Shown here: positions 9,718 to 63,715 of the stretch, in pieces | Layout of the letters: the number at the start of each line of letters is the position of its first letter | Position numbering within the stretch: position 1 is the stretch's first letter | Assembly (NCBI RefSeq): GCF_000688375.1 | Contig: NZ_JIAF01000001.1 | Span: forward strand, 248,001 to 312,000 | Length of the DNA stretch: 64,000 nucleotides | Reading direction: 5' to 3' | Source of the DNA: Prevotella sp. HUN102 | Lineage (GTDB): Bacteria > Bacteroidota > Bacteroidia > Bacteroidales > Bacteroidaceae | Position numbers and translations under genes: made by a program | Notes under the pieces: model-generated | Database searches by the model: none | The model's input: only the letters and a program-made list of their open reading frames with translations | Told to the model about the DNA's origin: nothing

Positions 9718-9806
9718 TTCCATTCTTGCGAAGATTGCGTTCCATTCTTGCGAAGATTGCAGTGCGTTTTTGCGAAGAATGAATTGCAATCTTCGCAAGA
9801 ATGGAA
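9718..9806. repeat. Four-unit 22-bp dyad element, locus A
   Basis: Four consecutive 22-bp units centred on TTGCGAAGA or its complement TCTTCGCAA. Units 1-3 point one way and unit 4 the other, so unit 4 can pair with unit 1 or 2 over about 20 bases. It lies between the convergent ends of the MmcQ/YjbR gene and the gene at 9932-10747. A 22-bp period is not a multiple of three, so this is not coding repeat. Confidence 0.85.
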
Positions 9807-9891
9807 AATGGAAAAAATACTTTGAGAATATATTGTATAAGCTGCTGATAACCAGTAGTGTTATCCTTTTTCTCCTGTATGATGAAAAAAT

Positions 9892-9931
9892 AAAGGCTTT
9901 GGAGCGAACGGACGATTGCTCCAAAGCCTTT
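9892..9931 (-). terminator. Bidirectional terminator after the 9932-10747 gene
   Basis: Stem AAAGGCTTTGGAGC / GCTCCAAAGCCTTT with a 12-base loop. It begins at the stop codon of the minus-strand gene and is flanked by A-runs and T-runs, so it could work in both directions. Confidence 0.82.
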
Positions 9932-10747
9932 TTATTCTTCTATTTCGGCGAGGCTTCTCCTGAAGTTGTGAATGAAATTGCTTGTAGTTTCCAGAGGGGC
10001 GTAATCGAAATATCGGAGACTTCGCCTGAGATTCCTTCTCAAAACCGTGCCGTTGTTCCTTACGAAGCCTGCCGAATTTTCCTTGAAGTGCCATTCCACA
10101 GTGGTTTCCTTCACGAGATTGGAAATGGTTCTGATGACGAGTTTGTATGTTCCTTTCTCCACCTGCTTCACAAAGGGAAGTTCGTCTTGCTCGAATCCGA
10201 AGAACTCCATCAGTATGCTGCCCTGCAACTGTGCCATACGGTCGAGGTGCAAGTTGGAAATCCAGTTTTCCAGTTTTACGAAATCCACTTTGTCGCCACG
10301 TGTTCTGAGGTACTGTCCGAGCCTGATAATGCCCTCAAGACTGATGCCTTTGTTGAGCATTGCATTGGTGTTGAAGACTATGATTTTGAGAATATCCACG
10401 GCTTCGACGGACGTATCGATGCTGTGCAGCTCCTTATGGATGATTTTCTGAAGTTTGTTGTTGAAGATTCCATTGCTCAGCCTTATCTCGCCTTTCTCAA
10501 TCTTCTGTTCAGGTTTTCGTTCCTCGAGGGTTTTCTGTACCTTTTCCACCAAGTCTTGCGGCAGCGTGAGGTTCTCATCGTTGGAGTTGTTGTTGATTCC
10601 CTTCACAAAGATGTTCAGCACATTCTGAATGTCTACCATCTGAAAGAGCTTGTACCACTTGAATGCAGACATCAGTTCAAGGCGCGTCTTGTCGTTGAAG
10701 GCACCTGAACGGAGGATATTGAAAAAGTTTCTTTGTATGATGTCCAT
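9932..10747 (-). CDS. Conserved hypothetical protein, 271 residues
   Basis: I do not recognise the family. The protein is soluble, rich in predicted helix, with no signal peptide or membrane segment. It opens MDIIQRNFFNILRSGAF, includes a charged stretch (EERKPEQKIEKGE) at about residues 75-87, and ends in a basic, aromatic region (NFIHNFRRSLAEIEE). Codon use looks like that of the neighbours and a strong terminator follows, so it is very probably a real gene. No partner gene is adjacent. Confidence 0.75.
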   Translation of the reverse strand: MDIIQRNFFNILRSGAFNDKTRLELMSAFKWYKLFQMVDIQNVLNIFVKGINNNSNDENLTLPQDLVEKVQKTLEERKPEQKIEKGEIRLSNGIFNNKLQKIIHKELHSIDTSVEAVDILKIIVFNTNAMLNKGISLEGIIRLGQYLRTRGDKVDFVKLENWISNLHLDRMAQLQGSILMEFFGFEQDELPFVKQVEKGTYKLVIRTISNLVKETTVEWHFKENSAGFVRNNGTVLRRNLRRSLRYFDYAPLETTSNFIHNFRRSLAEIEE

Positions 10748-10818
10748 CTCTTATTTGGTTTGACTTTACGTGATGTGTTTATGAGTAGCGTTTTGTGGAA
10801 ACGGTATAATCTCCGTGT

Positions 10819-11883
10819 TTAAATTCTTGTACGGTGATAAAAATCAATGTTTTCTTTTGAGAGCAGTTCGATAGGCATATAGTTTACAGATCGAACTTCT
10901 TTCTTTAATACCAGTGCGCTGAAGAGTGTTTCCACGCTTGAGTAGCCTTGTTGGTAGGCGTGCTGGGCAATGAGGAAGGAAATGCTGCCCTGTCGGAGGC
11001 AGTTTGCATTCTTGTGAACCATATCGTAGCCCATAATCTGGATTTCGCGGCGATTGGTTTTCAACAGAAATTCACCCACAATGTGTGCCTTTGAATTCAT
11101 CGTGATGCCGTGGTGGATTTCAGGATGCGCCTTGAAGAACTTCTCCAGAATGCCGTCGTATCGCTTCCGTTCTTCATCCAACGGGAGGTTTATCTCAAGA
11201 ATCTGCACGTTTGGGAAATGATTTTCCATATAGTTTCGGAAACCCACCTCACGGTTTTCCTGCTGTCGGCTGATCATTTTTCCGTCCTTGGTCTGCTTCA
11301 TCAGCATAATCGCCTTTTCCTCCTTGGCTATGAGCATCAGCATCCTTGCCGCAAATCTGCCGCTTTGGATGGGGTCCTGACCATAGAATGAGAGTGGTTT
11401 CAGGTCGGGCATATAGGAATCGAGAAGAATGAAGGGAATATTGTGCTTATGGAGTTCGTCGGTATAGTTCTTTGTCAGCTCCATCGTGTACGGAACGAGG
11501 ATTACTCCATCAGGATTTTCGGCAAGACTCTCTTCGTAAGTCTCAATGAAAGACTTGGAATGCAGTCTGTTGTAATACTTTATCTTTATGTTTAGTTGGA
11601 AATCGCGGCGCATTTCTATGGCTTTGAGCACTCCCTGTTCTATTTCTTCCCAGTAAGCCTCGCTGGAATGCTTCGGAATGAGGCAGTGAAAGGTGTAGCT
11701 CTTGTTGTATGCAAGGACGCTTGCATAGACGTTTGGCTGATAATTTATTTCCTTCAATACCTTTTCAACCTTCTCGAGTGCTTCTTTGGAAACGTTGGGA
11801 CGCTTGTGCAAGACCCTGTCTACCGTGCCTACGCTGACGCCCGCCTTTTCCGCAATATCTTTAATCCTAATCTTTTCAGCCAT
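10819..11883 (-). CDS. LacI-family transcriptional regulator
   Basis: The 354-residue protein starts at the ATG at 11883; upstream in-frame codons overlap the promoter and are not expected to be translated. Residues 1-60 form the LacI-type helix-turn-helix (IRIKDIAEKAGVSVGTVDRVLHKRPNVS) and hinge; the rest is a periplasmic-binding-protein-like ligand domain with YDMVHKNANCL near the C-terminus. Such regulators generally respond to a sugar. No sugar-use genes adjoin it; the divergent neighbour is the sensor kinase at 12032, so the target is unknown. Confidence 0.9.
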   Translation of the reverse strand: MAEKIRIKDIAEKAGVSVGTVDRVLHKRPNVSKEALEKVEKVLKEINYQPNVYASVLAYNKSYTFHCLIPKHSSEAYWEEIEQGVLKAIEMRRDFQLNIKIKYYNRLHSKSFIETYEESLAENPDGVILVPYTMELTKNYTDELHKHNIPFILLDSYMPDLKPLSFYGQDPIQSGRFAARMLMLIAKEEKAIMLMKQTKDGKMISRQQENREVGFRNYMENHFPNVQILEINLPLDEERKRYDGILEKFFKAHPEIHHGITMNSKAHIVGEFLLKTNRREIQIMGYDMVHKNANCLRQGSISFLIAQHAYQQGYSSVETLFSALVLKKEVRSVNYMPIELLSKENIDFYHRTRI

Positions 11884-11905
11884 ATATCCTAACTGTATTT
11901 GTATG

Positions 11906-12016
11906 CAAAAATAGTAATTAATCTTCAGAAAAGCACGATATGATTGTAACTTTTTCACTTTTAGGCAATAAAAGAGGAGTTCTTGTACCGTAATTGCGAA
12001 AACTTTTGTATTTTTG
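11906..12016. promoter_or_regulatory. Divergent promoters: regulator (minus) and sensor kinase (plus)
   Basis: TATTTTTG lies on the minus strand at 11913-11906, 23 bp before the regulator ATG, and on the plus strand at 12009-12016, 16 bp before the kinase ATG. The short shared control region could let the LacI-type protein act on both genes; no clear palindromic operator was found. Confidence 0.5.
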
Positions 12017-12031
12017 TGTCTGAATATTAGA

Positions 12032-15000
12032 ATGCGCAAAGGTAATGTAAGAATCGGTTTCGGGCTGCTTTCCACGCTTGTTGTCGTGATGGTAAGTGTC
12101 CTTTTGTCAGCTTGTTCGCAGACAGACAGAAATGCTGTGGACGAGTTGAACGAGAAAGCGTATTCCTTCCATTACAAGAATCTGGATTTGGTTTCCGTAT
12201 ATGCGAGACAGGCATACGGTGCTTCTAAGACTTACAGCGTAGGCAGGGCTGAAGCCCTCAATAATATGGCGTTCGTAGACATTATTAAGATGAATTTCAA
12301 GCGAGCAAAGCAGCGTCTGGATTCGATTCCTGAACTTACGGACAACCAAATCGAACTGCTGATAGCCGATATTCAGCAGATGCGACTGTGCCAACGCGAG
12401 TCGCGCAACAAGGATTTCTATGATTTCCGCGAACAGGCGAAGCAGAGACTGCGAAGAATAGCCGAAGAGGAGCATTTTCTGGACGATCATCAGCGCAAGA
12501 GAATGCTCTATGCTCGGTCGGAATTCAATATTGTAACGTCGGTTTATTACTATTACGTAGGACTTGGTGGACCTTTCGGCAAGGCTTTGCAGTCGATAGA
12601 TGCCGAAGAATTGCTGAAGGGCGACACGGCGCAATACCTCAAGTATCTATATAATATAGGGGCAGGTGGTGTGATTAAGGAACAATCGCAGGAGGAAGTG
12701 AATCAGAAAGAACTTGATAATCTCATCCGTTGCTACCTCCTTGCACAGCAGAACGGCTATAAATACTTTGAGGCCAACTCATTGCAGGCTATCAGCGAAC
12801 ACTTGCAGATAGCAGAGTATCGCGACAAGCTAATCGACGACAACCTCCCTGCATTCAAATACTTGAACGTTGATTCGATGCCCGACAGTTTGCTGGCAGG
12901 TAATTTTGCGCAGCGTTCATTGGATTTGTTCACTGCCTTTGGCGATAAATACCAAGTTGCCGGTGTATACAGAACGCTTGCTACCTGTTATTGGAACATT
13001 AATGACAACACTTCGGCGATAATCTGTTTGGAAAGTGCCCTGGACAAAAATCCGGAAATCGTTCAGGCTCCCGACCTTGTAGCCTCCATCCACGAGCAGT
13101 TGTGTGTTGTGTATTCCTCAATCAACGACAAGCAGAGCAGCGATTTCCACAGGAATGCCTATCTGGACTTACAGGAACAGACCCGACAGGACAGGTATTT
13201 AGAGTCGCGTGCAGGTCAGTTGGAAAAGACTTCCAAGACGCTTAACTTTATGATAATGCTCATTGTCATTCTCATTGCTATGGTTGTGCTGTTGCTTTTC
13301 ATTTTCCACAAGATGCGAAAGAGAAGAGCCAAGAAGCATTCTTTGGACGAATTGCTGAAACCCTTGCAGTTGTGGCAGGACCAGAATAAGGTTTCTATGG
13401 CAGAAATGGAGGATAAGTACGAGGCTTTGCAGGAAGACTATCAGGTGGAACTGTTGCATTTGGTGCGTAACAAGGAACGGAATCTTGAGCGACGTGCGAA
13501 GGTTGAACTCGTAAACTCCGTAACTCCTTTCATAGACCGTATGCTTCACGAGATAAAACGACTGAAAGCAGGCAACGAGAATGAGACATTGCGCAGCGAA
13601 CGATTCCAATATATCAATGAGCTTACGGATAAAATCAACGAATACAACGATGTACTGACCCAGTGGATACAACTGAAACAGGGAGAATTGTCGCTGCACA
13701 TCGAGAGTTTTCCTATTCAGAAGATATTCGATATTGTTGCAAAGGGCAAGATGGGGTTCCACTTGAAGGGCGTGGAACTCGATGTTCGGGAATCTTCTGA
13801 CGTGGTAAAGGCAGACAGAGGGCTGACATTATTTATGATAAACACGCTTGCCGACAATGCAAGGAAGTTTACGGAAAATGGCGATAAGGTTACGATAGTT
13901 TCCAAATCAGAAGCAGAATATGTGGAAATATCGGTTTCCGACACCGGAAAAGGCATACCGTCGGAAACGCTGGAGCACATTTTTGAGCATAAAGTGATTG
14001 TAGACAGCAGGGATTCAGAGTCCCACGGCTTCGGATTGATGAATTGTATCGGCATCATCAACAAGTACAAGAAGACCAGTCAGATATTCTCCGTGTGCGA
14101 GATAGGAGCTGAAAGCACGGAAGGGAAAGGCAGCAGATTCTTCTTCAGGCTTCCGAAGGGAGTTGCCAGATGCCTGTTGGCATTGCTTACGATGGTATTT
14201 CCCGTATCAATCCTTGCGTCGTCAGATGCCCATACAGAACAAAAAGACAGCACTTCTGCCCAAGTCTTCAACAACAAAGACCTGCAAAAGGCAGATGCTT
14301 ATGCTGATTCCGCATTTTACAGCAACGTAAACGGCACGTATGAAAAGACACTTGACTTTGCAGATACCTGCCGATATTACCTCAACAAGTACTATCTGTC
14401 GCTGCATCCGAACGGCAAGAATCTGATGAAGAGGGAATCAACGCAGGCTGAAATCCCTGCCGAAATCAAGTGGTTTCACGATAATCTGCCCACAAACTAT
14501 ATGGTAATCCTCGACATCAGAAACGAAAGTGCTGTCGCTGCATTGGCACTTCACGAATGGTCGCTGTACAGATACAACAACGATATGTTTACACACTTGT
14601 TCAAGGAGACCTCAGCCGACAAGACCTTGGCTGAATATTGCAGACAGATGCAGCGTTCGGAATCCAACAAGAACATTGCGGTAGCCTTGCTCATTATCCT
14701 TCTTATCTCCATTATGCCGATATATTATTTTATGTATTACCGACACCAACTGTTCTTCCGATTCTGCGTCGAGCAGTTGAAGCGAATGAATGAAATCCTA
14801 CTTGGCGATAAAACGGCAAAGGAAAAGAAGAAGGAGATAGCCGCTATTCCCACGAATAAATTTCCCGAATCGCTGCAAGACATCACAAACAAGATAAACT
14901 CAGCCCTCGACGACACCATTGAACGCGTGGAGGAAAGCAGACTGAACATCGAATTTGCCGAAGACAACCTGCACCGACTGCAATATGAGGATGAGAAACT

Positions 15001-15592: not shown

Positions 15593-15598
15593 AACAGA

Positions 15599-16955: not shown

Positions 16956-17163
16956 GAATAAGCGAACACGAAGGCAAAAGAGCGAGAGGAAAAATTCGGA
17001 TTCGAGATAAACTGCCCAAGAAACTATTAACAAGGCGACAAGTAGACTTCCAAAATTTCAAACGTTTTCGGTCTTGCTTTTCAATATTCTTCCGCACACA
17101 TAAAGACCGCTTCCCTGTCAATCCATTCGCCTGTTCTCCTGTTTGCTTCCCCAAATGGGGAAA

Positions 17164-17201
17164 ATAAAAAAAGAACCGGAAATTCTTCCAGTTCTTTTGT
17201 G
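17164..17201 (-). terminator. Terminator of tRNA-Cys
   Basis: On the minus strand AAGAACTGGAA and TTTCCGGTTC form a hairpin with a 3-base loop followed by seven T, starting right after the tRNA 3' end. Confidence 0.8.
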
Positions 17202-17537: not shown

Positions 17538-17556
17538 TTGTTCCTCCTATATTTAT

Positions 17557-18512: not shown

Positions 18513-18529
18513 ATGCCGTAAAATAGTGC

Positions 18530-18903
18530 CCCTGTAAGCCGGGTTCTGTTCCTTCATCCTCTTTCGATGAATGAAGGCGTCTGCCATTTATCTACTAATT
18601 GGGTCGCCCCAATTCTCAAGCATTCTACCCTCCATTGTGTCGTTATGAACTCGGGCGGGCTACCCTCAGACAATGGTTTACATGAACTTGCAACTCCTGA
18701 ACAGCACAGCCAGACGATCACCCGCCTGCTGGTGGTCTCTTACACCGCCTTCTCATCCTTGCCATCCTTGCAGATGGCGGTTGTTTTCTTCTGCTTACAT
18801 CTACTGTTGCCAATAGCTTCTATTTTCGGAAGCAGGATGCCCTGCGTTGCCCGGACTTTCCTCTCGCATCGGAATGATGCCAGCGGCAGAACCGGAACAC
18901 TAC
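18530..18903 (-). ncRNA. rnpB: RNase P RNA
   Basis: The catalytic RNA that removes tRNA 5' leaders. Near the 5' end the minus strand reads GAGGAAAGTCCGGGC, the nearly invariant core of bacterial RNase P RNA, and the 3' end reads AGAACCCGGCTTACAG, the other universal block. The roughly 374-nt length fits a type A molecule. Ends are estimated to within about 10 nt. It is encoded near tRNA-Cys, one of its substrates. Confidence 0.96.
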
Positions 18904-19191
18904 CTTATTAATATGCAAAGATAGTGCAAATAGCAGAAAGCACAAAATATATTATCATTTTTTGGATATTAAGTTCGATGTTCAGCCTCGCACACATACT
19001 TCATTGTTCTTTATTCATCGAACTGAATGAATGGAACTACTGCGATGGGATGTTGCGTAGATTGCCGTTGGGGTTAGCCGTTTCTCGGTGTGTTTGGGCA
19101 TTGAACCTTTGTAAAACCTTTGGTTCAAGATTGCATTTTATGCTGAAATTCACGATATTTGTAAGTCGTTGAAAATCAATGGATAAAAAAC

Positions 19192-19279
19192 GCAATCAAA
19201 TCTTGCGAAGAATGCGGCGCAATCTTCGCAAAAACGCATTGCATTCTTCGCAAGATTGCACGCCATTCTTCGGTTACTT
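19192..19279. repeat. Four-unit 22-bp dyad element, locus B
   Basis: Four consecutive 22-bp units: unit 1 carries CTTGCGAAGAATGC, units 2-4 carry the complementary TTCTTCGCAA form, the fourth being decayed (TTCTTCGGTTAC). Unit 1 and unit 3 are inverted copies over 17 bases. The flank GTAAGTCGTTGAAAATCA at 19161 is shared with locus C (31721). It lies between the divergently transcribed rnpB and htrA. Confidence 0.85.
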
Positions 19280-19551
19280 GCAAATAGTCTGTCAGTAGGC
19301 TGGCGGCAAGCATTGTTTTGCCGGGTAGGGATGGTGCCGTTTCCTCGGATAAATTCAACGGAAAACACAGGGAAGAAGAGCCTCGAGAACAGAATGAATA
19401 CCGCCCTGCGAGGTTTTTAAACAAAAGATAGCTATTTTGAATGAATGTAAATTTGTCAGCCTATCTCATTAAGAGCCGTTAAGCAAGCAAAAGTAATTGT
19501 TAAATTGGATGAAGAAAACTGACAAACTTTCAGTTTTACATTTTTTGCGTC

Positions 19552-30455: not shown

Positions 30456-31400
30456 TTACAACACATGTTTGAAGAACTCGCACTTTGGTGTGGAAAAGTT
30501 TAGTTTTTCCCTTGGTCTTTCATTCAATTTCTTCTGTATGGCCATAATCCTCTTGTCCGTATAGTTCTCAAAGGAATCCTTTTTAGGGATATATTGCCTG
30601 ATTAACTTGTTTGTATTCTCAATGGCTCCCTTTTGCCATAAACAATATGGATCTGCAAAGTACACAGGCACGCCCAACCATTTCGTGATATCCTTATGTG
30701 CGGCAAACTCAGGTCCGTTGTCAGTGGTAATGGTCTTCAGTCTGTCCTTGTATGGCAGCAGCAGTCTCCTGACTGCTTTTGCCAGAGGCTTCGACTGCTT
30801 CCCAAATGGCAGTTTCCGCATAAGCAACATATTGGTGGATTTCTCCACCAGTGTGAGTATGGCCCTTTGGGCAGGGTCGACGATCAGGTTCATCTCAAAG
30901 TCTCCAAATCTCTTCCCGTCCACTTCCTTGCTTCTCTCATGGATGCTCACCCTGTCCTTGACAGGAAGATGCCCACCCTTGGGGTGATGCCTGTATTTCA
31001 TCTGATGTCTTGTGTGCCCGGCAAGTTTCCCTGTCGGGTCATTGTGGATGATGTTGTAGATGGACTGATGGAACACCCTTATCCCCTCATTCACACGCAG
31101 ATACCCTGATATTTGTCTTGGAGACCATTGGTCATTAACGATATATTCCTTGATTCTCCAGACCAATTCGTCGGAGAGCCTGGAGTTGCTCACCGTTCGC
31201 CTCCTGCGCTCCATGGCCATGTCGTGCGCCTTCGTCCAGATATACTTTCCCGAGGGCGTGCTGTTGCGTTTGATTTCACGTGAGAGTGTTGCCTGACTGA
31301 TGCCGACGATGGCGGCAATTTCTTTTCTTGCGGTTTTCTTTTGAAGTAAGGCGAAAATTTGCGACCTTTGCTCCGAGATTAATTGATGGTACATAAACAA
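30456..31400 (-). CDS. IS30-family transposase
   Basis: A 314-residue DDE transposase of normal length. The N-terminal helix-turn-helix (KEIAAIVGISQATLSREIKRN, about 26-46) binds the ends. In the catalytic core D227 is in TTDNGPEF and E261 in KGAIENTNKLIR, with the usual 33-residue spacing. At the place of the first catalytic Asp (family pattern WEGDLI) this protein has FEMNLI, with N171. If the alignment is right, this copy may be inactive. The rest of the frame is intact. Confidence 0.9.
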   Translation of the reverse strand: MFMYHQLISEQRSQIFALLQKKTARKEIAAIVGISQATLSREIKRNSTPSGKYIWTKAHDMAMERRRRTVSNSRLSDELVWRIKEYIVNDQWSPRQISGYLRVNEGIRVFHQSIYNIIHNDPTGKLAGHTRHQMKYRHHPKGGHLPVKDRVSIHERSKEVDGKRFGDFEMNLIVDPAQRAILTLVEKSTNMLLMRKLPFGKQSKPLAKAVRRLLLPYKDRLKTITTDNGPEFAAHKDITKWLGVPVYFADPYCLWQKGAIENTNKLIRQYIPKKDSFENYTDKRIMAIQKKLNERPREKLNFSTPKCEFFKHVL

Positions 31401-31535: not shown

Positions 31536-31758
31536 GCTACTCTTTTTTGCACTTCGATTTGGAATCTTCATATGTCTTGCTGATAAATGAAACAATCAGG
31601 TATTGCCTTTTTAAACTTTTAACTCATTAGCATAAGCCAAACTTTCAATCTTTCTCGCATATCCTTTCTCTGGCAGACTGTAATTCTCAAATCAGCAATG
31701 TTTCAATTATTTGCCAATTCGTAAGTGTTTGAAAATCAGAAGCCAAATAGCGACTTTT

Positions 31759-31846
31759 CAATCTTCGCAAAAATGCAATCCATTCTATCGAAGATTGCGC
31801 TGCGTTTTTGCGAAGATTGCATTGCATTCTTCGCACAAATGAAAAT
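31759..31846. repeat. Four-unit 22-bp dyad element, locus C
   Basis: Four 22-bp units in the order TCTTCGCAA, (decayed) TATCGAAGA, TTGCGAAGA, TTCTTCGCA, that is, alternating orientation. The upstream flank GTAAGTGTTTGAAAATCA (31721) is shared with locus B. It lies upstream of the metalloprotease promoter. Confidence 0.85.
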
Positions 31847-31916
31847 TATGTTTTTACAAGTGATTTTTGGGTGTTCGTCAGACTAATGGCGAGATAAGGG
31901 TTTTTAACCAAAAAGC

Positions 31917-38157: not shown

Positions 38158-38245
38158 TTTCATCTGTGCGAGGTTTGCAATGCGTTTTTGCGAAGAACTA
38201 ATTGCGTTTATCGCAAGAATACAATGCAATTATCGCACGAATAAA
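38158..38245. repeat. Four-unit 22-bp dyad element, locus D (diverged)
   Basis: Four 22-bp units with cores TGTGCGAGGT, TTTGCGAAGA, TATCGCAAGA and TATCGCACGA. The period is exact though the sequences have drifted more than at other loci. Confidence 0.75.
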
Positions 38246-52070: not shown

Positions 52071-52300
52071 TTGTTTTCTATTTGTATAAAATCTCTCTAA
52101 ATCAAAACCGTGTTTCAAGGCTAATTCATAATAACTTTGATCAGGGGCTTCGCCAATGATTCCATAAACTTCTTTTCTGTACTCAGGATAAAATCTGAAA
52201 TCACGGGGAATAAACTTCCATGAGTCTGGATAATTTGTCCTTTGCATTTCATTCTTTCTGTTTTGCATATAAAGAAGCCTATCTGCAACAGAATATATAT
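52071..52300 (-). pseudogene. C-terminal gene remnant cut off by IS982 copy 2
   Basis: From the IS edge at 52300 the minus strand reads about 75 codons of protein-like sequence (VADRLLYMQNRKNEMQR, then IPRDFRFYPEYRKEVYG, ending ERFYTNRKQ) before a stop at 52070-52068. An ATG inside the IS makes a 106-codon chimaeric frame, but the true N-terminal part is missing: on the far side of the IS the EFR1 gene ends at once. The 5' part was therefore lost or moved. Family not recognised. Another few codons (SEEIMPDGGLEF, 52059-52024) beyond may belong to a second remnant. Confidence 0.6.
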
Positions 52301-53345
52301 ACGCCAGTTCGGGATAATAAATCTTAAAAAAGTTCCAGTTGTCTTTTATCTTCCAAATATACTGACAGCCCATCCGGTTTATTTTCAAAGAAACAATACG
52401 CCGCCAATGCCGAGCATAAGTTTATGATGAAATTATGTATCGACCTGTGTCTTGAATGTACAAGGTTTGCCTTGTTTTTTAATAACTCATTTATACACTC
52501 TATTATATATCTCTTTCGTAGCATGATTTTATCATACACAGGCATAAGTTTGTTTTTCATCTTTGCTTTCAGTCCGTGTACAAGATGTATTCCCTGCTCA
52601 AAGAGTCCCTCAAAGAGTTCCCGCTTGATATATCCCCTGTCTGCGAATACTTTTCCATAGAGCACTTTTGTGAAAACAGACCATACCCTTTGATCTCTGT
52701 CGGCCACGTTGGCAGGTGTAAGACAGAATGTTATGACCTCTCCTGTGTCATTGCAAAGCAGATGCAGTTTGAAGCCATGGCACCATCCCATTGTGCCCTT
52801 TCCGCTCTTGGCAAAGCCCTCAAAAACCCTATTGAAATATCTTCTTACATTATGGCATACAGGTATCATAGTACTATCGACAAAGCTGATTCCCGTGCAT
52901 TTGCCAAAGGCGTAAAGTTTCATAAAAGTAAGCATTGTAAAGAACTCCCGAGGCATAAGTTCCACAAAGCGATTGTAGGATACTGCGGTGGGAAAACATT
53001 GGGCAAGATGAACTTTCACAAAGAACAGATAATAATGTTTGAAGTTTCGGAAAGTCCCAAAATGGCAGCATAGCAAAATGGTCATAATCTCACTTTCACA
53101 CATACGCCCCTTACGGTGTCTGACATGCTTGTAGCCTTCGTCTGTGGGAGCTATTTGAAGGTTTTTATTCAATTCTGCGCCTAAATTCTTGCAAAACTCA
53201 TCAATAACACAGAAAATTTCTATAACTTTGTCTTCGGTAATCATCGCTTATATTGTTTGTAATTAATTGATGTTCAACTGTAAAGTTACAAAAAATAAGC
53301 GAGATTACCAACATTTTCAACAACTTTCTTATCCCGAACTGGCGT
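52301..53345 (-). mobile_element. IS982-family insertion sequence, copy 2 (1045 bp, complete)
   Basis: Same length and same 17-bp terminal repeats as copy 1 (321-1365), in the opposite orientation. Flanks are ATATAT on the left and ATTTAT on the right, not a clean duplication. It sits between the gene remnant and the last codon of the EFR1 gene, whose stop starts only 3 bp outside the element. Confidence 0.94.
52324..53244 (-). CDS. IS982-family transposase, copy 2
   Basis: A 306-residue full-length transposase, 98% identical to copy 1 (five differences). The candidate catalytic residues D123 and D202 are kept, so it should be as active as copy 1. The near identity indicates that the two copies are recent or are being homogenised. 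Confidence 0.93.
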   Translation of the reverse strand: MITEDKVIEIFCVIDEFCKNLGAELNKNLQIAPTDEGYKHVRHRKGRMCESEIMTILLCCHFGTFRNFKHYYLFFVKVHLAQCFPTAVSYNRFVELMPREFFTMLTFMKLYAFGKCTGISFVDSTMIPVCHNVRRYFNRVFEGFAKSGKGTMGWCHGFKLHLLCNDTGEVITFCLTPANVADRDQRVWSVFTKVLYGKVFADRGYIKRELFEGLFEQGIHLVHGLKAKMKNKLMPVYDKIMLRKRYIIECINELLKNKANLVHSRHRSIHNFIINLCSALAAYCFFENKPDGLSVYLEDKRQLELF

Positions 53346-53347
53346 AT

Positions 53348-55920: not shown

Positions 55921-56004
55921 CATTCTTCTCACAAATGGTTTGCTATCTTGCGAAGATTGGTTTGCATTCTTCGTACAAATGGAATACGTTTTTGCGAAGA
56001 ATAC
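55917..56004. repeat. Four-unit 22-bp dyad element, locus E
   Basis: Four 22-bp units with cores TTCTTCTCACAAATG (decayed), CTTGCGAAGATTG, TTCTTCGTACAAATG and TTTTGCGAAGAATA. The first unit begins in the T-tract of the preceding terminator. Confidence 0.75.
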
Positions 56005-56272: not shown

Positions 56273-56336
56273 ATCTGCATTATCTGCGCCATCTGCGAGA
56301 CCATTATCTCTCGCAGATGGCGCAGATTACGCAGAT
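56273..56336. repeat. CGCAGAT-type long dyad, copy 2
   Basis: Arms of 28 bases with only two mismatches (left ATCTGCATTATCTGCGCC..., right ...GGCGCAGATTACGCAGAT) around an 8-base loop, one of the longest stems in the window. Confidence 0.8.
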
Positions 56337-56423
56337 ATTTTTCTTTGCAATTCGATTTTATTCTATTTAAACTTTAGATAAACAATCTATTAATCTCTTT
56401 TAAAGGAATTTATATAAAACGAA

Positions 56424-56489
56424 ATCAGCGCAATCTGCGTAATCTGCGAGAGCCAATTTCTCTTACAGGTTTACGCAGATTGCGCTGAT
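56424..56489. repeat. CGCAGAT-type long dyad, copy 3
   Basis: Arms ATCAGCGCAATCTGCGTAA... and ...TTACGCAGATTGCGCTGAT pair perfectly over 19 bases, then imperfectly towards the loop. It lies just beyond the pgl stop and may end that transcript. Confidence 0.75.
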
Positions 56490-56515
56490 ATTTTATGATT
56501 CTGAGAGAGCAGAGA

Positions 56516-57220: not shown

Positions 57221-57241
57221 ATTGCATTTAGGCAGCTTGAA

Positions 57242-58738
57242 TTACAGTTCGCAATACAAGTCTGTATTGGTAAGGTTCTTGCAGGGATTGGTCCATTCTG
57301 CACCGTGTTCTCTTACGAGTTTTTCGCTCTCGAGAGGTCCCCAAGTGCCGGCAGGATAACCATACAGATGTGCTTCGGGATGCTCTTCCCAATACTTCAG
57401 GATGGGATCAAAGAACTTCCACGATGCCTCCACCGCATCGCTGCGGGTAAAGAGTGTAGGGTCGCCCTTGATGCTGTCGTCTATCAGTCTTGCGTATGCA
57501 TCCATAATGGATTTGCCATCCATACTGTCGTAAGTGAAATCCATTGCAACCTGCTTCACGTCGAAGCCGGAACCGGGCACCTTCATACCGAGGTTCAGCA
57601 CCATTCCTTCGTTGGGTTGGATGCGAAGTGTGAGTTTGTTGGGACGTGGATGCTGCCCTAACGTTCCCTTGAACATCTGGTGTGGTGCCGCCTTGAAGTG
57701 AACCACGATTTCCGTTACCTTCGTAGGCATCTGCTTTCCTGTGCGAATGTAGAAAGGAACGCCGTTCCATCGCCAGTTGTCTATCTCCAGTTTCATTGCA
57801 ACATAAGTTTCGGTGCGCGAGTTTGGATTGACACCTTTCTCCTCACGATAGCCCTTCTTGTCGCCTTCAGTCATATATTGCCCTCGAACGATGTTTTCAT
57901 TGAAATCTTCTTCAGTGAGAGGTCTCAGCGATTCATACACCTTTACCACTTCATTACGGAAATAATCTGCATCAAACTTTGATGGTGGTTCCATCGCTGT
58001 CAGTGCAACGAGCTGTATGAGATGGTTCTGCACCATATCGCGAAGCGTACCCGTAGTGTCGTAGAAGCCACCACGGTTTTCGATTCCGAGATTCTCAACT
58101 GCCGTAACCTCTACGTAGTCAATGTAATTACGATTCCAGAGAGGTTCAAAAATGCCATTGGCAAAACGGAATGCCAGTAAGTTCTGCGCCGTTTCCTTGC
58201 CCAAAAAGTGATCAATACGATATACCTGATGTTCCTCGAATGCTGAACTGTATATCCTGTTAAGCTCCAATGCCGACTCAAGATTGTATCCGAAAGGCTT
58301 TTCAACGATGATTCGCGATCCCGGAGTGTTCAATCCAGCACGTTTCAGATGCAAAGGCACAACACCATATAGCGAAGGTGGGGTGGCAAGATAGAAGAGA
58401 AGATTGTCCGGATTTTCTGTTTTGGTGAGTTCTGCAATGCGCTGACGCAGCAGAGGATAGCCTTCTTCCTTTGCAGGATCTATTGAAAGATAATGCAGAT
58501 GTCCCACAAACTTCTTCATTGTAGACTCATCCCGTTCCTCTTCCTTCACGAAAATGTGAAGCTGTTCCAGTATGTATTTCTGATATTCTGCGTCTTCATA
58601 ATCGGTACGTGATACTCCGATGATGGAGAAATCGCCCGTAAGCCGCTCGTCTTTGAAGAGCGAATAGAGAGCAGGCATAAGTTTTCGCTTGGTAAGGTCG
58701 CCTGAAGCCCCGAATATTATCATTGAAAAATTATCCAT
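57242..58738 (-). CDS. zwf: Glucose-6-phosphate 1-dehydrogenase
   Basis: Oxidises glucose 6-phosphate to the lactone, the entry step of the pathway, reducing NADP or NAD. The 498-residue protein (ATG at 58738; an upstream in-frame ATG at 58780 is possible) starts MDNFSMIIFGASGDLTKRKL, the Rossmann dinucleotide motif, and has the catalytic RIDHFLGKE (about residues 175-183) and EKPFG. Normal length. Middle gene of the operon. Confidence 0.96.
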   Translation of the reverse strand: MDNFSMIIFGASGDLTKRKLMPALYSLFKDERLTGDFSIIGVSRTDYEDAEYQKYILEQLHIFVKEEERDESTMKKFVGHLHYLSIDPAKEEGYPLLRQRIAELTKTENPDNLLFYLATPPSLYGVVPLHLKRAGLNTPGSRIIVEKPFGYNLESALELNRIYSSAFEEHQVYRIDHFLGKETAQNLLAFRFANGIFEPLWNRNYIDYVEVTAVENLGIENRGGFYDTTGTLRDMVQNHLIQLVALTAMEPPSKFDADYFRNEVVKVYESLRPLTEEDFNENIVRGQYMTEGDKKGYREEKGVNPNSRTETYVAMKLEIDNWRWNGVPFYIRTGKQMPTKVTEIVVHFKAAPHQMFKGTLGQHPRPNKLTLRIQPNEGMVLNLGMKVPGSGFDVKQVAMDFTYDSMDGKSIMDAYARLIDDSIKGDPTLFTRSDAVEASWKFFDPILKYWEEHPEAHLYGYPAGTWGPLESEKLVREHGAEWTNPCKNLTNTDLYCEL

Positions 58739-58819
58739 TTTCTTGTGTCTTTGAGATTGAATGATGGACGATGATGCCATCTTTCATCATTTTTCATTGT
58801 GCATTATATGTTTCTAATC

Positions 58820-60295
58820 TCATACATTATATGTTCCCGACTTTGTATTGCCACCACGACCAGTCCAATTTTCGTGGAAAAATTCGCCACGTTCTTTGTC
58901 TTTCCGCTCGAAAGTATGTGCTCCGAAGTAATCTCTCTGCGCCTGAATCATATTCGCAGAAAGGTCTGTTGACGTGAGAGAGTAGAAATAATTCAATGCA
59001 GAAGAGAAAGCCGGAACAGGCAGCCCCTCTGTTAATGCAAGCGCAACAAGCTGCTTCCATCCGTTCAGCAACTCATTCATTTCGGCAGTGAAGTAAGGGG
59101 CTAGCAGCAGATGCTTTGGTTTCTCGCTGCCTTCATACGCTTTTGCAATGTCATTGAGGAATGCACTCCTGATGATACAGCCACCACGCCACATCCGAGC
59201 AATGGAAGCCATATCGAGATTCCAGTCAAATTTGTCGCTTGCTGTCTGAAGAACGGAAAATCCCTGTGCATAGCTCACGAGCTTTGATGCGTAGAGGGCG
59301 GCATAAACGTTTGACAATAATGTCTCACGGTCGGCTACCTGCTTGACATCTGACTGTGGAAAAGCCGTCGAAGCCAGTCCGCGCATATCCTTTTGAGCCG
59401 AAAGACTGCGCTCGAATACGGCCGTTGCAATCAATCCCAACGGCATACCGAGTTCCATTGCGTTGATAACCGACCACTTACCGGTGCCTTTCTGTCCAGC
59501 AGCATCGAGAATATGGTCAATCAGGTAGCTGCCGTCTGCCTCACGATGGCGCAATATCTGTGCAGTAATCTCAATCAGATAGCTGTTCAGTCTGCCCTTG
59601 TTCCATCCCTCGAATACGTCTGCCATCTCCTCGTTTGTCATACCGCCGAGGTGCTTCATTACCCAGTATGCCTCGGAAATGAGCTGCATATCTCCGTATT
59701 CAATACCGTTGTGAATCATTTTTACGAAGTGTCCAGCCCCCTGAGGACCTACCCATTGGCAGCAAGGACTGCCGTCTTCCGCCTTAGCCGAAATACTTTG
59801 GAGCACAGGCTGCACGCTTTCCCAAGCCTCTTTCGAGCCACCGGGCATAATGGATGCACCATTCAATGCACCTTCTTCGCCACCGGAAACGCCACTTCCC
59901 ACAAACAGGAAGCCTTTTTCTTCGGCCAAAGCCACACGACGGTTGGTATCTTCATAGTTTGAATTACCTCCGTCAATCATTATATCGCCCGGAGAAAGCA
60001 ACGGGAAAAGCTGTTCCATCAATTCGTCCACGGCCTTTCCGGCACGCACCATCATCATAATCTTTCGGGGTTGAGCTATTGATTGAACGAAAGATGCCAT
60101 ATCCGTATAGCCCTCAATGCTTTTACCTTTAGCCCGACCGTCCATAAAACGCTCCACAACACCTTCCTCAATCCCGGGTACTGTACGGTTATATACCGAC
60201 ACCTGCCAGCCATTGTTTGCCATATTCAAGGCAAGATTCTCGCCCATTACTGCAAGTCCGATAAGTCCGATATCCGATTTCTTCTGATTTTCCAT
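58820..60295 (-). CDS. gnd: 6-phosphogluconate dehydrogenase (decarboxylating)
   Basis: Converts 6-phosphogluconate to ribulose 5-phosphate and CO2, the third step. The 491-residue protein has the N-terminal IGLIGLAVMGENLALN dinucleotide fold, GGNSNYEDT, the substrate-binding GSGVSGGEEGA and catalytic HFVKMIHNGIEYGDMQ. It is the long form (about 470-490). First gene of the operon, with the minus-strand box TAACTTTG at 60415-60408. Confidence 0.96.
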   Translation of the reverse strand: MENQKKSDIGLIGLAVMGENLALNMANNGWQVSVYNRTVPGIEEGVVERFMDGRAKGKSIEGYTDMASFVQSIAQPRKIMMMVRAGKAVDELMEQLFPLLSPGDIMIDGGNSNYEDTNRRVALAEEKGFLFVGSGVSGGEEGALNGASIMPGGSKEAWESVQPVLQSISAKAEDGSPCCQWVGPQGAGHFVKMIHNGIEYGDMQLISEAYWVMKHLGGMTNEEMADVFEGWNKGRLNSYLIEITAQILRHREADGSYLIDHILDAAGQKGTGKWSVINAMELGMPLGLIATAVFERSLSAQKDMRGLASTAFPQSDVKQVADRETLLSNVYAALYASKLVSYAQGFSVLQTASDKFDWNLDMASIARMWRGGCIIRSAFLNDIAKAYEGSEKPKHLLLAPYFTAEMNELLNGWKQLVALALTEGLPVPAFSSALNYFYSLTSTDLSANMIQAQRDYFGAHTFERKDKERGEFFHENWTGRGGNTKSGTYNV

Positions 60296-60407
60296 CCGTT
60301 TACCTTAATTATATATTCGTATTTTATTTTACCAATCAACTGTTGAATTATCTGTGATAGCTCCTATCCTGACGAGCATTATCCTTGAAACAGTATTTCT
60401 TCATTCG

Positions 60408-60415
60408 CAAAGTTA
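60408..60415 (-). promoter_or_regulatory. -7 box of the gnd-zwf-pgl operon
   Basis: TAACTTTG on the minus strand, about 110 bp before the gnd ATG. Confidence 0.45.
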
Positions 60416-60532
60416 ATCAATTTTTTCAGCGATTCCTAATTTTTCCGATTGAAAGATTTGATGTAGCAATAGATAAAATCTATTATATGTTTGCGATTAG
60501 CGTATTACTGTCTTCGATAGTTTTGTCTGCAC

Positions 60533-60566
60533 TTTTGCGCTAATTGGAAAATAATATTTATCTTTG
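60533..60566 (+). promoter_or_regulatory. Promoter of the ABC exporter genes
   Basis: TTTTG (60533-60537) and TATCTTTG (60559-60566) with a 21-bp spacer, 20 bp before the ATG at 60587. Confidence 0.65.
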
Positions 60567-60586
60567 TGGACTAAAAATATCTTATT

Positions 60587-61960
60587 ATGTTGAAAACATT
60601 AATAACAATATGGTTTAAGCAGAAGCGAAGGAGCTTTAAGTGGCTTACGCTTTTTATGACGCTTTATTTCTACACCATATTCATAGGCAGCTTTGTTTTC
60701 GGGCTTATCGAATCGGGAATAACCTACGGAGAACTGAGGGAAATAAACTGGATAGCCATCGTTCCCGTAATTCTTGTTTCCATTATGGGTTTCGACATCA
60801 TTTCAAAACTGCTGTTCAAGCGTGGAAAAGCCACAATGGATGCGTTTCTGAAAACCCGGCCGGTGGACAAATCCTCTTGGGGAAAGTTCATCGTGGTGGA
60901 AAATCTCTTTGAAAACTGGAACATCTTCTGGGCAGTTCCAATGTCAATCGCAGCTTTCATCCTTATGCCGCTGCATCAGGCACTGGTAGCTGCCATACTG
61001 ATTATCCTCTTTTCGCTCGCCAATGGCATTGCCGTAACGGCCTTCTATACTGCCAAAGGATGGGAATACAAGATGGCAGTAGTTACCGGATGGATTTTCT
61101 GGACAGTAGTATCATCGCTGCATTCCTTCAATTTCTTCAACTTGCCTTGGGCTGTTCACGTCGGACTCTTCATTCTGATGTGCCTCTTTTCCATTTGGAT
61201 AACAGTCTATTACATCTGCAAGTTAAAGGTTTACGTAGAGCCGAAACAGGAAGAAAAGCATTCTACGAAAGTGGGTACACGCTCTCTCTATGCGATGGAA
61301 TACCGGGCTTTTTTCCGAAGCAAGCGACTGCGCTTCTTCGTCTTCTTCATATTGTTTATGATTTTCAACGCCTACTTGCAGACATCCAACGGCATTGACG
61401 AGATAGGACCGTTTATGCACTACTATGGAGTACCATTCGCCATCCTTTTTGCAAGTGCCATCTATCTGCAATTTACCTTTGCCATCGAGGGAAACTTCTT
61501 CGACGGACTCTGGAGCCGCCCTGTTCCTGTCAGGGAAATCCTTGTCAGAAAGTTTAATTTCGGTGGACTCCTCACGCTGCTTAGTGGCTTGCTCGTGCTG
61601 CCGGTATGCTGGATGAACGACATTGAGCTGCTTTTCGTCCTTTCAACCATCGTGTTGGGCATCGGATTCGCCAATCCGATATTGCTTCTCTTTGCTCTGA
61701 CTACAAAGCGAATAGACCTCTTCACAACTGGATTTATGAACTATCAGGGCAGCGACTTCTCGCTGAACTCCTTTGCCGTTACGCTGACCGTACTCGGCGG
61801 ACCGATGCTGATTCTCGCTTTCTGTCCGATGAATATAACCATTCTGCTGTACTTCATCCTCGGCGGACTGGGGCTTGCCGCACACAGACTGATTATCAAC
61901 AAGATTTCAGAACTATACATCAACAACCGTTACAAGCATTTCGAGCGATACAGAAGCTGA
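60587..61960 (+). CDS. DUF5687-family ABC transporter permease
   Basis: A 457-residue inner-membrane protein with about ten to twelve predicted membrane segments in two similar halves (for example WIAIVPVILVSIMGFDIISK and LLTLLSGLLVLPVCWM) separated by a charged loop (VEPKQEEKHSTKV, about residues 217-229). It matches the DUF5687 family, permease subunits paired with an ATPase. The ATP-binding gene follows about 110 bp later on the same strand, completing a simple exporter. Cargo unknown. Confidence 0.85.
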   Translation: MLKTLITIWFKQKRRSFKWLTLFMTLYFYTIFIGSFVFGLIESGITYGELREINWIAIVPVILVSIMGFDIISKLLFKRGKATMDAFLKTRPVDKSSWGKFIVVENLFENWNIFWAVPMSIAAFILMPLHQALVAAILIILFSLANGIAVTAFYTAKGWEYKMAVVTGWIFWTVVSSLHSFNFFNLPWAVHVGLFILMCLFSIWITVYYICKLKVYVEPKQEEKHSTKVGTRSLYAMEYRAFFRSKRLRFFVFFILFMIFNAYLQTSNGIDEIGPFMHYYGVPFAILFASAIYLQFTFAIEGNFFDGLWSRPVPVREILVRKFNFGGLLTLLSGLLVLPVCWMNDIELLFVLSTIVLGIGFANPILLLFALTTKRIDLFTTGFMNYQGSDFSLNSFAVTLTVLGGPMLILAFCPMNITILLYFILGGLGLAAHRLIINKISELYINNRYKHFERYRS

Positions 61961-62071
61961 TGCCTCCGTGCTTCTGCCCGATAACGGCATTCAGCAATTA
62001 CCTTATTAATATATAAACAACAGCCCTTCGCATTGACCCAATGCAGAAGTGGAAAACAAAATACAGAATAT

Positions 62072-62779
62072 ATGGAAATCAGAATAGAGAACCTCAAGAA
62101 GATATACGGCGAAAAGACCGTGATAGACATTCCGGAACTGGCTCTGAATCAGGGAGAACTCGTGGGACTTGTGGGAAACAACGGAGCCGGAAAAACCACA
62201 TTGATGCGGCTGATGCTCGACCTTATCAAGGCCGACGGCGGACGTGTGCTCTCTAATGGCAATCAAGTGGATGAGGACGAGGCGTGGAAGAAATACACAG
62301 GTTCATTTATCGACAAGAGTTTCCTCATCGACTACTACACACCGGAGGAATTTTTCGACTTCATCGGCAATGTCTACGGCATCGATGCTGACACCATTAC
62401 TGGGCGTCTGTCGCAATTTGAATCGCTGATGCGCGACGAAATCATCGGAACGGGCAAGTATATCCGTAATTTCTCCGAAGGAAACCGTCAGAAAATCGGT
62501 ATCATTGCGGCAATGATTATCAATCCCGATTTCCTCATTCTCGACGAACCGTTCAACTATCTCGACCCGTCTTCGCAGATAACGATAGCCAAACTGATTC
62601 AGAAAATCAACAAGGAACTCGGCACTACCGTGCTTCTTTCAAGCCACAATCTCAACTTCGTTTCCGAAATCTCCACCCGTATCATCCTGATGGAGAAGGG
62701 AATCGTGCTCAGGGACATTTCCAATGTGGATGGTTCTGCCGAGAAAGAACTTCAGGAATATTTTGAAGGTACGGAATAA
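62072..62779 (+). CDS. ABC transporter ATP-binding protein
   Basis: The 235-residue ATPase partner of the DUF5687 permease. ATG at 62072 is preferred over an upstream in-frame start because the fold begins MEIRIENLKKIYGEKTV. Walker A is GNNGAGKTT (about 36-44), the signature loop FSEGNRQKIGI replaces LSGGQ (about 136-146), Walker B is DFLILDEPFNYLDP (about 154-167), and the switch His is in SSHNLNFV. In-frame codons after the stop continue as protein-like sequence (see the remnant at 62780). Confidence 0.92.
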   Translation: MEIRIENLKKIYGEKTVIDIPELALNQGELVGLVGNNGAGKTTLMRLMLDLIKADGGRVLSNGNQVDEDEAWKKYTGSFIDKSFLIDYYTPEEFFDFIGNVYGIDADTITGRLSQFESLMRDEIIGTGKYIRNFSEGNRQKIGIIAAMIINPDFLILDEPFNYLDPSSQITIAKLIQKINKELGTTVLLSSHNLNFVSEISTRIILMEKGIVLRDISNVDGSAEKELQEYFEGTE

Positions 62780-62865
62780 TCATTTGGAGTAAGAGAGTTT
62801 ACGAGCAACAGTCCCGAGCAAATAGCTGAATGGTATGACTTCTATAAAAATGGTTTCGTGAGATA
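62780..62865 (+). pseudogene. Possible gene remnant behind the ABC ATPase gene
   Basis: Directly after the ABC stop codon and in the same frame, 27 codons (FGVREFTSNSPEQIAEW, YDFYKNGFVR) read as plausible protein before a TAA. There is no start codon or partner, so this may be the tail of a lost gene. Family unknown. Confidence 0.35.
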
Positions 62866-62893
62866 AGGTTATTTTTCAGAGATACTAAAATTT

Positions 62894-63301
62894 ATGTTCA
62901 TAACGTCAAACATAAAAGCCACGTTTCCGTGCAATTTACAGAGCGTTTGGCAAGTCGTAACATCGCTAACAGACTATTCGTGGAGAAGTGATGTTGAAAA
63001 GATAGAGGTCATATCAGACACGCAATTTGCAGAAATAACGAAGAGTGGATATAAGACAACTTTCACGGTAACAAGACAAGAACCTTTTTGTCTTTGGGAG
63101 TTTGATGTGGAGAATGACAATATGAAAGGACATTGGGTCGGTGTCTTCAGTGGCAATGAAAAGAATACTACGATTGACTTTACAGAACACATTGAGCCTA
63201 AGAAATGGTTTATGATTCCGTTTGTGAAGATTTATTTAAAATATAGGCAAGTTAAGTATGTCAGAGATTTAAGGAACGTGTTAAAAAGAGTACGACCATA
63301 G
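62894..63301 (+). CDS. SRPBCC-family protein
   Basis: A 135-residue protein of the SRPBCC (START/polyketide-cyclase-like) fold, small cavities that bind hydrophobic ligands. It opens with the typical beta-strand and helix pattern SNIKATFPCNLQSVWQVVTSLTDYSWRSDVEKIEV, then alternates strands (FTVTRQEPFCLWEFDVEND, WVGVFSGNEKNTTIDFTEHI) and ends in the long amphipathic helix (YLKYRQVKYVRDLRNVLKRV). No signal peptide. Ligand and role unknown. Confidence 0.8.
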   Translation: MFITSNIKATFPCNLQSVWQVVTSLTDYSWRSDVEKIEVISDTQFAEITKSGYKTTFTVTRQEPFCLWEFDVENDNMKGHWVGVFSGNEKNTTIDFTEHIEPKKWFMIPFVKIYLKYRQVKYVRDLRNVLKRVRP

Positions 63302-63715
63302 AGTTTTGGAAACCATTATGACAAAATACGAATTGATAATGATGCTTCTCCCTGATTATGGTCAGTTGTTGGGATTATCCTTACAGTGCTGAGCTTACTC
63401 TCCGCTTTTTTCTTGATAGGACAAGCGAACAGGCTTACAGGAAACAAGTGCAGATGCAGCGAAGTTTCCAACAGATTTATTCACAACAGCACCGTTCGGG
63501 CATTACACTCTTCTTGCTTCTTCTGTTGTTCTGAAACAGCTTTGTAAATAACTGATAATCAATAGATAAAATATCTATTTGCAAACGTGCGAAGAATGCG
63601 TTCCATTCTTCGCACGTTTGCATTGCGTTTTTGCGAAGATTGAAATGCAATCTTCGCACGTTTGGAAAACACGTGCAGGTTCGAGAAAATCAAGGGACTG
63701 AACAAGGGAAATTCT
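63302..63715. other. 414-bp region between the SRPBCC gene and uvrA
   Basis: No intact gene. 63318-63530 can be read as pieces of a membrane-like protein in shifting frames (for example LWSVVGIILTVLSLLSAFF), possibly a decayed gene. The 22-bp-unit element locus F is at 63580-63667. Confidence 0.5.
63580..63667. repeat. Four-unit 22-bp dyad element, locus F (best preserved)
   Basis: Four 22-bp units. Units 1 and 2 form a perfect hairpin with stem TGCAAACGTGCGAAGAATG (19 bp) and a 4-base loop; units 3 and 4 form a second hairpin with stem TGCGAAGATTG. It lies between the converging SRPBCC and uvrA genes. Confidence 0.9.

What the first reader, a model, noticed from the sequence alone, without database searches (positions are those of the whole stretch)
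9718..63667. A dispersed element of exactly four 22-bp units with mixed orientation, at six intergenic loci
At 9718, 19192, 31759, 38158, 55917 and 63580 the same design recurs: four consecutive 22-bp units (88 bp) built on TTCTTCGCAA or its complement, in varying orientation order. Units pair as hairpins, perfectly over 19 bp at locus F. The unit number and the period are fixed although sequences have drifted, which suggests selection on spacing (about two helical turns each). All six lie between genes, in convergent, divergent and tandem settings. A 22-bp period excludes coding repeats. Possible roles: binding array for an architectural or partition protein, RNA processing site, or a mobile REP/MITE-like element moved by a transposase elsewhere in the genome.
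Basis: seen in the sequence. Interest (0 to 1): 0.72.

Follow-up and report, generated by a model that had tools for sequence, protein, structure and literature searches.

The report
Prevotella 22-bp palindrome lattice repeats
Between its genes this Prevotella genome carries a few hundred copies of a small non-coding DNA element built of four mirror-image units spaced exactly 22 base pairs apart, and other Prevotella species carry arrays on the same 22-bp grid made of different unit sequences, so the spacing is kept while the sequence is replaced.

Summary
A lattice-free scan of 552,889 bp of this genome gave 124 of 128 neighbour spacings of exactly 22 bp and never more than four units on the lattice. 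Extrapolated, there are about 290 copies; 0 of 90 examined lie in predicted genes. Just over half (22 of 40 in the 464-kb sample) belong to an oriented element of about 139 bp ending in TTGATTTTCAANNACTTACAAA, 18-19 bp after unit 4. The 19 bp between the centres of units 2 and 3 occur in two opposite, mutually exclusive orientations (28:19, both 0, of 67), so micro-inversion explains at least part of the mixed orientation. A species-blind scan finds the 22-bp lattice with other palindromic words in most other Prevotella sampled, with no 22-bp peak at the strict threshold in other Bacteroidales families; there the unit number varies. The end motif lies in 11-bp phase with arrays at 37 of 51 places. 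My reading: non-autonomous dispersed elements whose units are helically phased binding sites of an unidentified dimeric protein, probably the one that spreads them. Protein and transposition are inferred. No RAYT (PF01797) was found in this genome.

The parts
9721..9803 (+). array A: four 17-bp units at 22-bp period, order ---+; end motif absent
19158..19295 (-). array B as full oriented element: units 19198-19280 (order -+++ on + strand), right-end motif 19158-19179 (distance 18)
   Evidence: outer edge on the 19295 side approximate
31718..31856 (-). array C as full oriented element: units 31759-31841 (order +--+), right-end motif 31718-31739 (distance 19)
   Evidence: outer edge approximate
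38161..38243 (.). array D: four degenerate units (order --++); end motif absent
55921..56003 (.). array E: four units (order +-+-); end motif absent
63541..63679 (-). array F as full oriented element: units 63582-63664 (order -+-+), right-end motif 63541-63562 (distance 19)
   Evidence: (as L007); outer edge approximate

Best explanation
The arrays are copies of small, non-coding, non-autonomous dispersed elements of a class found across Prevotella. Shown: each unit is a 17-bp imperfect palindrome plus a 5-bp linker; unit centres lie on a strict 22-bp grid; one subfamily has a conserved right end; the segment between the opposed centres of units 2 and 3 exists in both orientations; other Prevotella carry the same grid with other palindromic words; the end motif tends to lie at multiples of 11 bp from unit centres. 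Inferred: each palindrome binds a dimer of one DNA-binding protein; spacing of two helical turns puts successive dimers on one face of the DNA so that they touch; that assembly, probably made by the recombinase or transposase that spreads the element, is what sets the 22-bp ruler; when protein and word change together, the word is replaced and the geometry stays. The flips arise from hairpin-type strand exchange between inverted unit cores, which turns the bases between them round without changing the spacing.
For: Dispersal as a unit: 40 copies align without a gap over 139 columns at unrelated intergenic places, conservation ending near -12 and +40; the end motif lies 19 bp after unit 4 in 61 and 18 bp in 6 of 67. 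No orientation to genes (32 against 34) and none of 90 in genes. Fixed ruler. Ruler independent of word: in pooled Prevotella samples period 22 is the top of periods 15-30 (threshold 52: own 23, next 3; eight genomes 12, next 6; starts of contigs of twenty genomes 12, next 4), while other families of the order give 1 at 22 and 3 at 23. Own word: 10 of 397 other Prevotella match its core-pair pattern, none at the 33-bp length seen in every listed own match. Helical phase: 37 of 51 places within 1 bp of a multiple of 11, p=2e-11 against a uniform null. Flips: CAAACGT-type arm left in 28, right in 19, both in 0 of 67, p=3.5e-6; one state's consensus is the reverse complement of the other's; linkers inverted in register, permutation p=0.001.
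Against: No binding protein or transposase identified; RAYT not found. No terminal inverted repeat, and no convincing target-site duplication at the ends (best 5 of 67 for 4 bp, 3 of 67 for 5 bp, over many tried boundaries). Comparison of two sister genomes showed arrays present in one only, but no clean empty site. Unit number varies in other species, so 'four' is not a general requirement. 14 of 51 motif-array distances are out of phase, among them the first relative found, L090 (centre distance 58). Some genomes hold many different words, which would need several proteins. Arrays upstream of rnpB in four of six genomes hint at positional constraint rather than free movement.
Confidence: 0.48

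Rival explanations
1. Self-made DNA: palindromes that form hairpins during replication are duplicated and flipped by strand slippage and template switching; the 22 bp is set by hairpin or polymerase geometry and no dedicated protein is needed.
For: Flips inside arrays; whole-unit differences, 3 against 5 units between the same flanks in sister genomes; all six window arrays fold better than shuffles as single strands, z -2.3 to -9.7; many unrelated words on the same grid. Hairpin-loop inversions of 5-50 bp are described in chloroplasts (passages of PMC12928735).
Against: Does not explain dispersal of a 139-bp unit with a fixed outer motif, the constant number four in this genome, a ruler restricted to Prevotella in the sample, or the phase of the outer motif.
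Confidence: 0.2
2. Host-selected scaffold: docking arrays for a nucleoid, partition or global regulatory protein, kept for chromosome organisation.
For: About 290 copies, all 90 examined in intergenic DNA; fixed spacing; arrays near rnpB in four of six genomes; four of five compared arrays of G003 and G026 have no gap over 88 bp.
Against: Words differ between species and within one genome; 14 of 18 and 12 of 16 arrays of G003 and G026 lie outside alignable blocks, though this partly reflects what was fetched; the oriented family has a mobile-element-like common body.
Confidence: 0.2
3. RNA-level element: hairpins acting as transcription terminators, RNA-processing or mRNA-protecting signals.
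For: Arrays can form strong hairpins; copies without the end motif are more often convergent (10 of 21 against 37 of 193 intergenic regions).
Against: The oriented family shows no orientation preference and sits in divergent regions too (15 of 66); no consensus fold in 40 aligned copies (a weak test because unit orientation varies); no Rfam match at the arrays at gathering thresholds; many words in other species are palindromes with no loop.
Confidence: 0.06
4. REP/BIME elements moved by a RAYT that was missed or lost.
For: Intergenic, many copies, palindromic, alternating orientation, species-specific sequence, as REPs and BIMEs are described (passages of PMC2817692).
Against: PF01797 not found in this genome, which is 99.96% complete, nor in 6 of 13 other array-bearing genomes (G058, G039 and G404 of these are incomplete); no GTAG or CGTC tag beside the units in the 40-copy consensus (read).
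Confidence: 0.06

Closest known systems
REP / BIME with RAYT (passages of PMC2817692 and PMC3733652 seen)
   Same: Intergenic, high copy, palindromic, species-specific units in alternating orientation
   Different: No RAYT found; no GTAG/CGTC tag seen; strict 22-bp lattice kept across different words; a conserved end motif
PINSR of Prevotella intermedia and relatives (abstract and passages of PMC4755523 seen)
   Same: Prevotella; intergenic; 177 and 184 copies; no terminal inverted repeats, no coding
   Different: Described as one 188-bp repeat; no lattice mentioned in the passages seen. Its sequence is in a figure not held, so whether it is a member of this class could not be tested
BrickBuilt MITE of Porphyromonas gingivalis (passages of PMC4596501 seen)
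   Same: Bacteroidales; intergenic element with tandem units of similar length
   Different: 23-nt direct repeats of another sequence, up to at least 18 repeats in one copy, IS5-type terminal inverted repeats
Small hairpin-loop inversions of chloroplast genomes (passages of PMC12928735 seen)
   Same: Short segment between short inverted repeats found in both orientations
   Different: There at separate loci; here inside a multicopy element

Membership tests
REP/BIME-RAYT | Cognate RAYT (Y1 transposase, PF01797) in the genome | tested here: not met
   0 in this genome; rings in 5 of 14 control genomes; absent from 6 of 13 other array-bearing genomes
REP/BIME-RAYT | GTAG or CGTC tag at one end of the palindrome | tested here: not met
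   No such tag beside the units in the 40-copy consensus (read)
REP/BIME-RAYT | Extragenic, high copy, alternating orientation | tested here: met
   0 of 90 in genes; about 290 copies; order -+-+ in 50 of 67
MITE | Terminal inverted repeats | tested here: not met
   The conserved left and right edges are not inverted repeats of each other (44 copies)
MITE | Target-site duplication | tested here: inconclusive
   No boundary and length stand out (best 5 of 67 at 4 bp; 15 of 67 at 3 bp lies inside the element); no clean empty site
MITE | Parent transposon with the same ends in the genome | not tested
   Only the right-end motif was searched: 15 hits without a listed model match were read; 6 adjoin four units, 3 one unit, 2 have units on the other side, 4 none; no parent was seen, but a search for one was not made
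PINSR | Sequence match to the 188-bp consensus | not testable with these tools
   Consensus only in a figure
BrickBuilt | 23-nt direct repeats of AGAYCATARTATCCTCTCRTRTG with IS5-type ends | tested here: not met
   Period 22, palindromic units, other sequence, no TIR (description)
Known structured RNA | Match to an Rfam family or a shared fold | tested here: not met
   Only rnpB and one tRNA in the window at gathering thresholds; 0 consensus pairs, a weak test

The most novel reading that the evidence does not exclude
Prevotella share a class of dispersed element whose inherited feature is geometry, not sequence: palindromes on an 11-bp-phased, 22-bp grid, with the palindromic word overwritten from species to species and several words within some genomes. 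This would imply a family of fast-evolving dimeric DNA-binding recombinases that assemble side by side on the grid, copy the element and flip its segments.
Probability: 0.33. Interest if true: 0.82.

Novelty: new variant of a known kind. Interest (0 to 1): 0.62.

Why it matters
If true, a genus of abundant human and rumen bacteria carries a repeat class defined by spacing rather than sequence, which sequence-based repeat finders would score as unrelated families in each species. It would be a natural experiment on how a DNA-bound protein array keeps its geometry while its recognition word changes, and a REP-like system without a RAYT. It also shows intergenic elements whose inner segment has flipped repeatedly.

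Tried and rejected
RAYT as mover: not found here, no correlation in 14 genomes. Rfam: nothing at the arrays. Promoter or terminator role of the end motif: orientation to genes is random. TSD search: nothing convincing. Empty sites in sister genomes G003/G026: arrays present in one only, junctions unresolved. Viral contigs: 8 stretches match the core-pair pattern, none holds a four-unit array. Model search of 150 Prevotella: 9 others with only weak matches, 1-2 each; of those I read two: L090 is a real array of another word, L091 has a shorter period and was not followed. End motif as a sure marker: part of the hits in other genomes are something else, an IS leader (L106, L130, L132, L146, L150), another repeat (G034), an inverted-repeat element (G349, G408), or no array (several in G126, G207, G300). 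Consensus RNA fold: none. Papers: searches showed no description of a 22-bp palindrome lattice in Prevotella; I saw listings and passages only, and the library lacks most subscription journals.

Rows dropped or biased: the 139-column alignment keeps only copies at distance 19 (40 of 44). The 67/23 split is biased because many loci were fetched with queries of the oriented family; without that bias it is 22/18 (464 kb) or 29/20 (552,889 bp). In one search the arm test used all 67 copies, the linker test the 29 with canonical centres and clear arms. In one search the G003, G026 and G017 regions had been chosen round rnpB, where one array each was already known. The 51 distances were typed by hand from the rows, one per place. 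Periods of 18 bp (7 hits at threshold 48 in the eight-genome set, 4 of them in G202, more than its 3 at 22) and 27-28 bp were not followed. At the laxer threshold 48 the other families give 5 at 22 against 4 at 23, three of the five in or near A+T-rich runs of one short contig (L239).
Full report
What was checked. The window is G000:C1:248001-312000 of a 3,318,148-bp genome in four contigs. A 1192-aa protein of the window has its nearest named relatives in Prevotella brunnea (58%) and Prevotella sp. P6B1, so the genome is taken as a Prevotella; the species is not known. The six arrays exist where stated. Each unit is a 17-bp imperfect palindrome (learned consensus CATTCTTCGCAAGATTG) followed by a 5-bp linker; unit orientation is set mainly by the three central bases, CGC or GCG, or CCG in the first unit.

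Chance and fixity. A PWM scan of 464,000 bp (window plus 20 stretches of 20 kb) found 40 four-unit arrays at each threshold from 15 to 32 bits and none in Markov sequence. The next lattice positions on either side score negative in nearly all copies, with a few weak positives. Without assuming a lattice, 552,889 bp gave 124 of 128 spacings of 22, three of 44 and one of 54, and no cluster exceeded four units on the lattice. The density extrapolates to 286 (464 kb) or 294 (552,889 bp) copies in the genome. A model of the oriented element listed 150 rows, its limit (150 of 2,244 candidates scored); at least four are second-strand rows of a place already listed.

The element. Orienting copies by their flanks exposes one family: a left edge near ACGATTT, units 1 to 4, a spacer, then TTGATTTTCAANNACTTACAAA; conservation ends near -12 and +40 (44 copies). 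Forty copies at distance 19 align over 139 columns with no gap. In the larger set the distance is 19 in 61 and 18 in 6 of 67. In samples not chosen by this family it makes up 22 of 40 or 29 of 49 arrays. The motif with up to 3 mismatches has 98 matches in this genome against 1 for the reversed control. Of 15 hits without a listed model match that I read, 6 adjoin four units, 3 one unit, 2 have units on the other side and 4 none. Arrays without the motif include degenerate copies and a second subfamily.

Context. By a home-made gene caller none of 90 arrays lies in a gene. For the 66 oriented copies with both neighbours the setting is 40 tandem, 15 divergent and 11 convergent, and the right end faces a gene start in 32 and a gene end in 34. 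This is what an element without regulatory orientation would show. Copies without the motif are more often convergent (10 of 21) than intergenic regions of at least 100 bp are (37 of 193).

Flipping. In 67 oriented copies the arms facing each other across units 2 and 3 are anti-correlated (z -6.0). The CAAACGT-type arm is on the left in 28, on the right in 19 and on both sides in none (p=3.5e-6). Among the 51 copies with canonical centres, 18 are clearly in one state, 11 in the other, and 22 carry other arms. The consensus of one state is the reverse complement of the other, and the linkers are inverted in register (permutation p=0.001). The segment between opposed cores therefore inverts as a block. 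The same event between other cores would give the other unit orders (-+-+ in 50 of 67); that step is inferred. All six window arrays fold as single strands better than the mean of shuffles (z -2.3 to -9.7). Hairpin-loop inversions of 5-50 bp are described for chloroplasts (passages of PMC12928735).

The class across Prevotella. This genome's core-pair pattern has 89 forward and 84 reverse matches, every listed one 33 bp long; it matches in 10 of 397 other Prevotella genomes sampled, never at that length. The end motif with up to 2 mismatches is in 337 of 398 sampled genomes including this one, up to 58 copies in another (G357), reversed control 0-2, though part of those hits are unrelated. Beside it lie 22-bp arrays of other words: AAAAGCTAAGCTTTTG in G357, AAAAGCTATGCTTTTG in G039, AAACGGCACGTTTCG in G058, CAATCAGGCCCAAATTG in G001 and others. 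A species-blind score of palindromy plus neighbour similarity finds 48 places in own DNA and 0 in Markov sequence at threshold 46. In 20-kb stretches chosen by position alone it has hits in 7 of 8 other Prevotella genomes (G224 one weak hit), none in G075; of two named loci, P6B1 has one and P. brunnea none. At threshold 52, period 22 leads among periods 15-30 in own DNA (23, next 3), the eight genomes (12, next 6) and starts of contigs of twenty more (12, next 4), while 290,803 bp from 20 genomes of other families of the order give 1 at 22 and 3 at 23. Within what was sampled the lattice is a Prevotella feature.

Phase. In stretches not chosen by the motif, 14 of 64 arrays have it within 90 bp, against 19 of 2,000 random places. 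In other species, for places with both, the distance from the motif's palindromic centre to the nearest unit centre is most often 21-22 or 33; 37 of 51 places are within 1 bp of a multiple of 11 (p=2e-11 against a uniform null), 14 are not. Caveat: the motif is itself palindromic and could in places influence the register of a weak array.

Sister genomes. G003 and G026 share blocks of about 87-97% identity. In 120 kb each they hold 18 and 16 places above threshold 48 with many different words and up to nine units. One orthologous pair has 3 and 5 units between the same left flank and a similar right junction. Four of five compared pairs have no gap over 88 bp, with 2, 6, 6 and 10 substitutions; the fifth is the 3-against-5 pair. 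At least two arrays have no counterpart, but the surrounding sequence is too diverged to show a junction or duplication. Only 4 of 18 and 4 of 16 lie inside alignable blocks, partly because the fetched regions do not fully correspond.

Interpretation. A 139-bp unit copied to unrelated intergenic sites says mobile, now or once. A 22-bp ruler and an 11-bp phase independent of the word say protein assembly on one face of the helix. The flips say the palindromes take part in strand exchange. The simplest joint reading is a non-autonomous element whose phased palindromes dock a dimeric recombinase-like protein. Geometry and flipping are shown; protein, dimer state and transposition are inferred. 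Replication slippage alone and a host scaffold remain open.

Known things. REP/BIME (passages of PMC2817692, PMC3733652) is the nearest kind in behaviour, but the RAYT and tag tests fail. BrickBuilt (passages of PMC4596501) differs in unit, period, number and ends. PINSR (abstract and passages of PMC4755523) has similar setting and copy number; membership could not be tested.

Noticed in passing
window 320-1366 and 52300-53346: Two 1047-bp copies, 99% alike and in opposite orientation, each with a 306-aa ORF: an insertion sequence pair (family not determined). A leader like that of such an IS resembles the end motif (L106).
   Followed up: no
window 30456-31400: Transposase-like gene (HTH_38, and rve below its cut-off; IS30-like by recall) next to array C.
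   Followed up: no
window 56273-56336: 28-bp inverted repeat, 93% complementary with 8 nt between the arms, about 270 bp from array E; looks like a separate hairpin.
   Followed up: no
window 18519-19280; L123 and L124 at 1301; L125 at 244: An array lies upstream of the RNase P RNA gene in this genome and, with other words, in G003, G026 and G017, but not above threshold 42 in the G010 and G038 loci: a shared position.
   Followed up: partly
G003 and G026 joined regions: The ends of a segment inverted between the two genomes lie close to arrays (G026 62909 and 74131); arrays may sit at rearrangement points.
   Followed up: no
L217-L219 (G202) and others: Palindromic repeats at 18 bp in G202 and at 27-28 bp elsewhere also exceed neighbouring periods.
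   Followed up: no
L183, L193, L202 (G034); L176, L177 (G349, G408): Other multicopy repeats carrying a similar TGATTATCA motif, one of them with inverted copies about 83 bp apart.
   Followed up: no
L042 at 8461, L053 at 12949: In two arrays without the end motif a further unit lies 53-54 bp outside the array.
   Followed up: no
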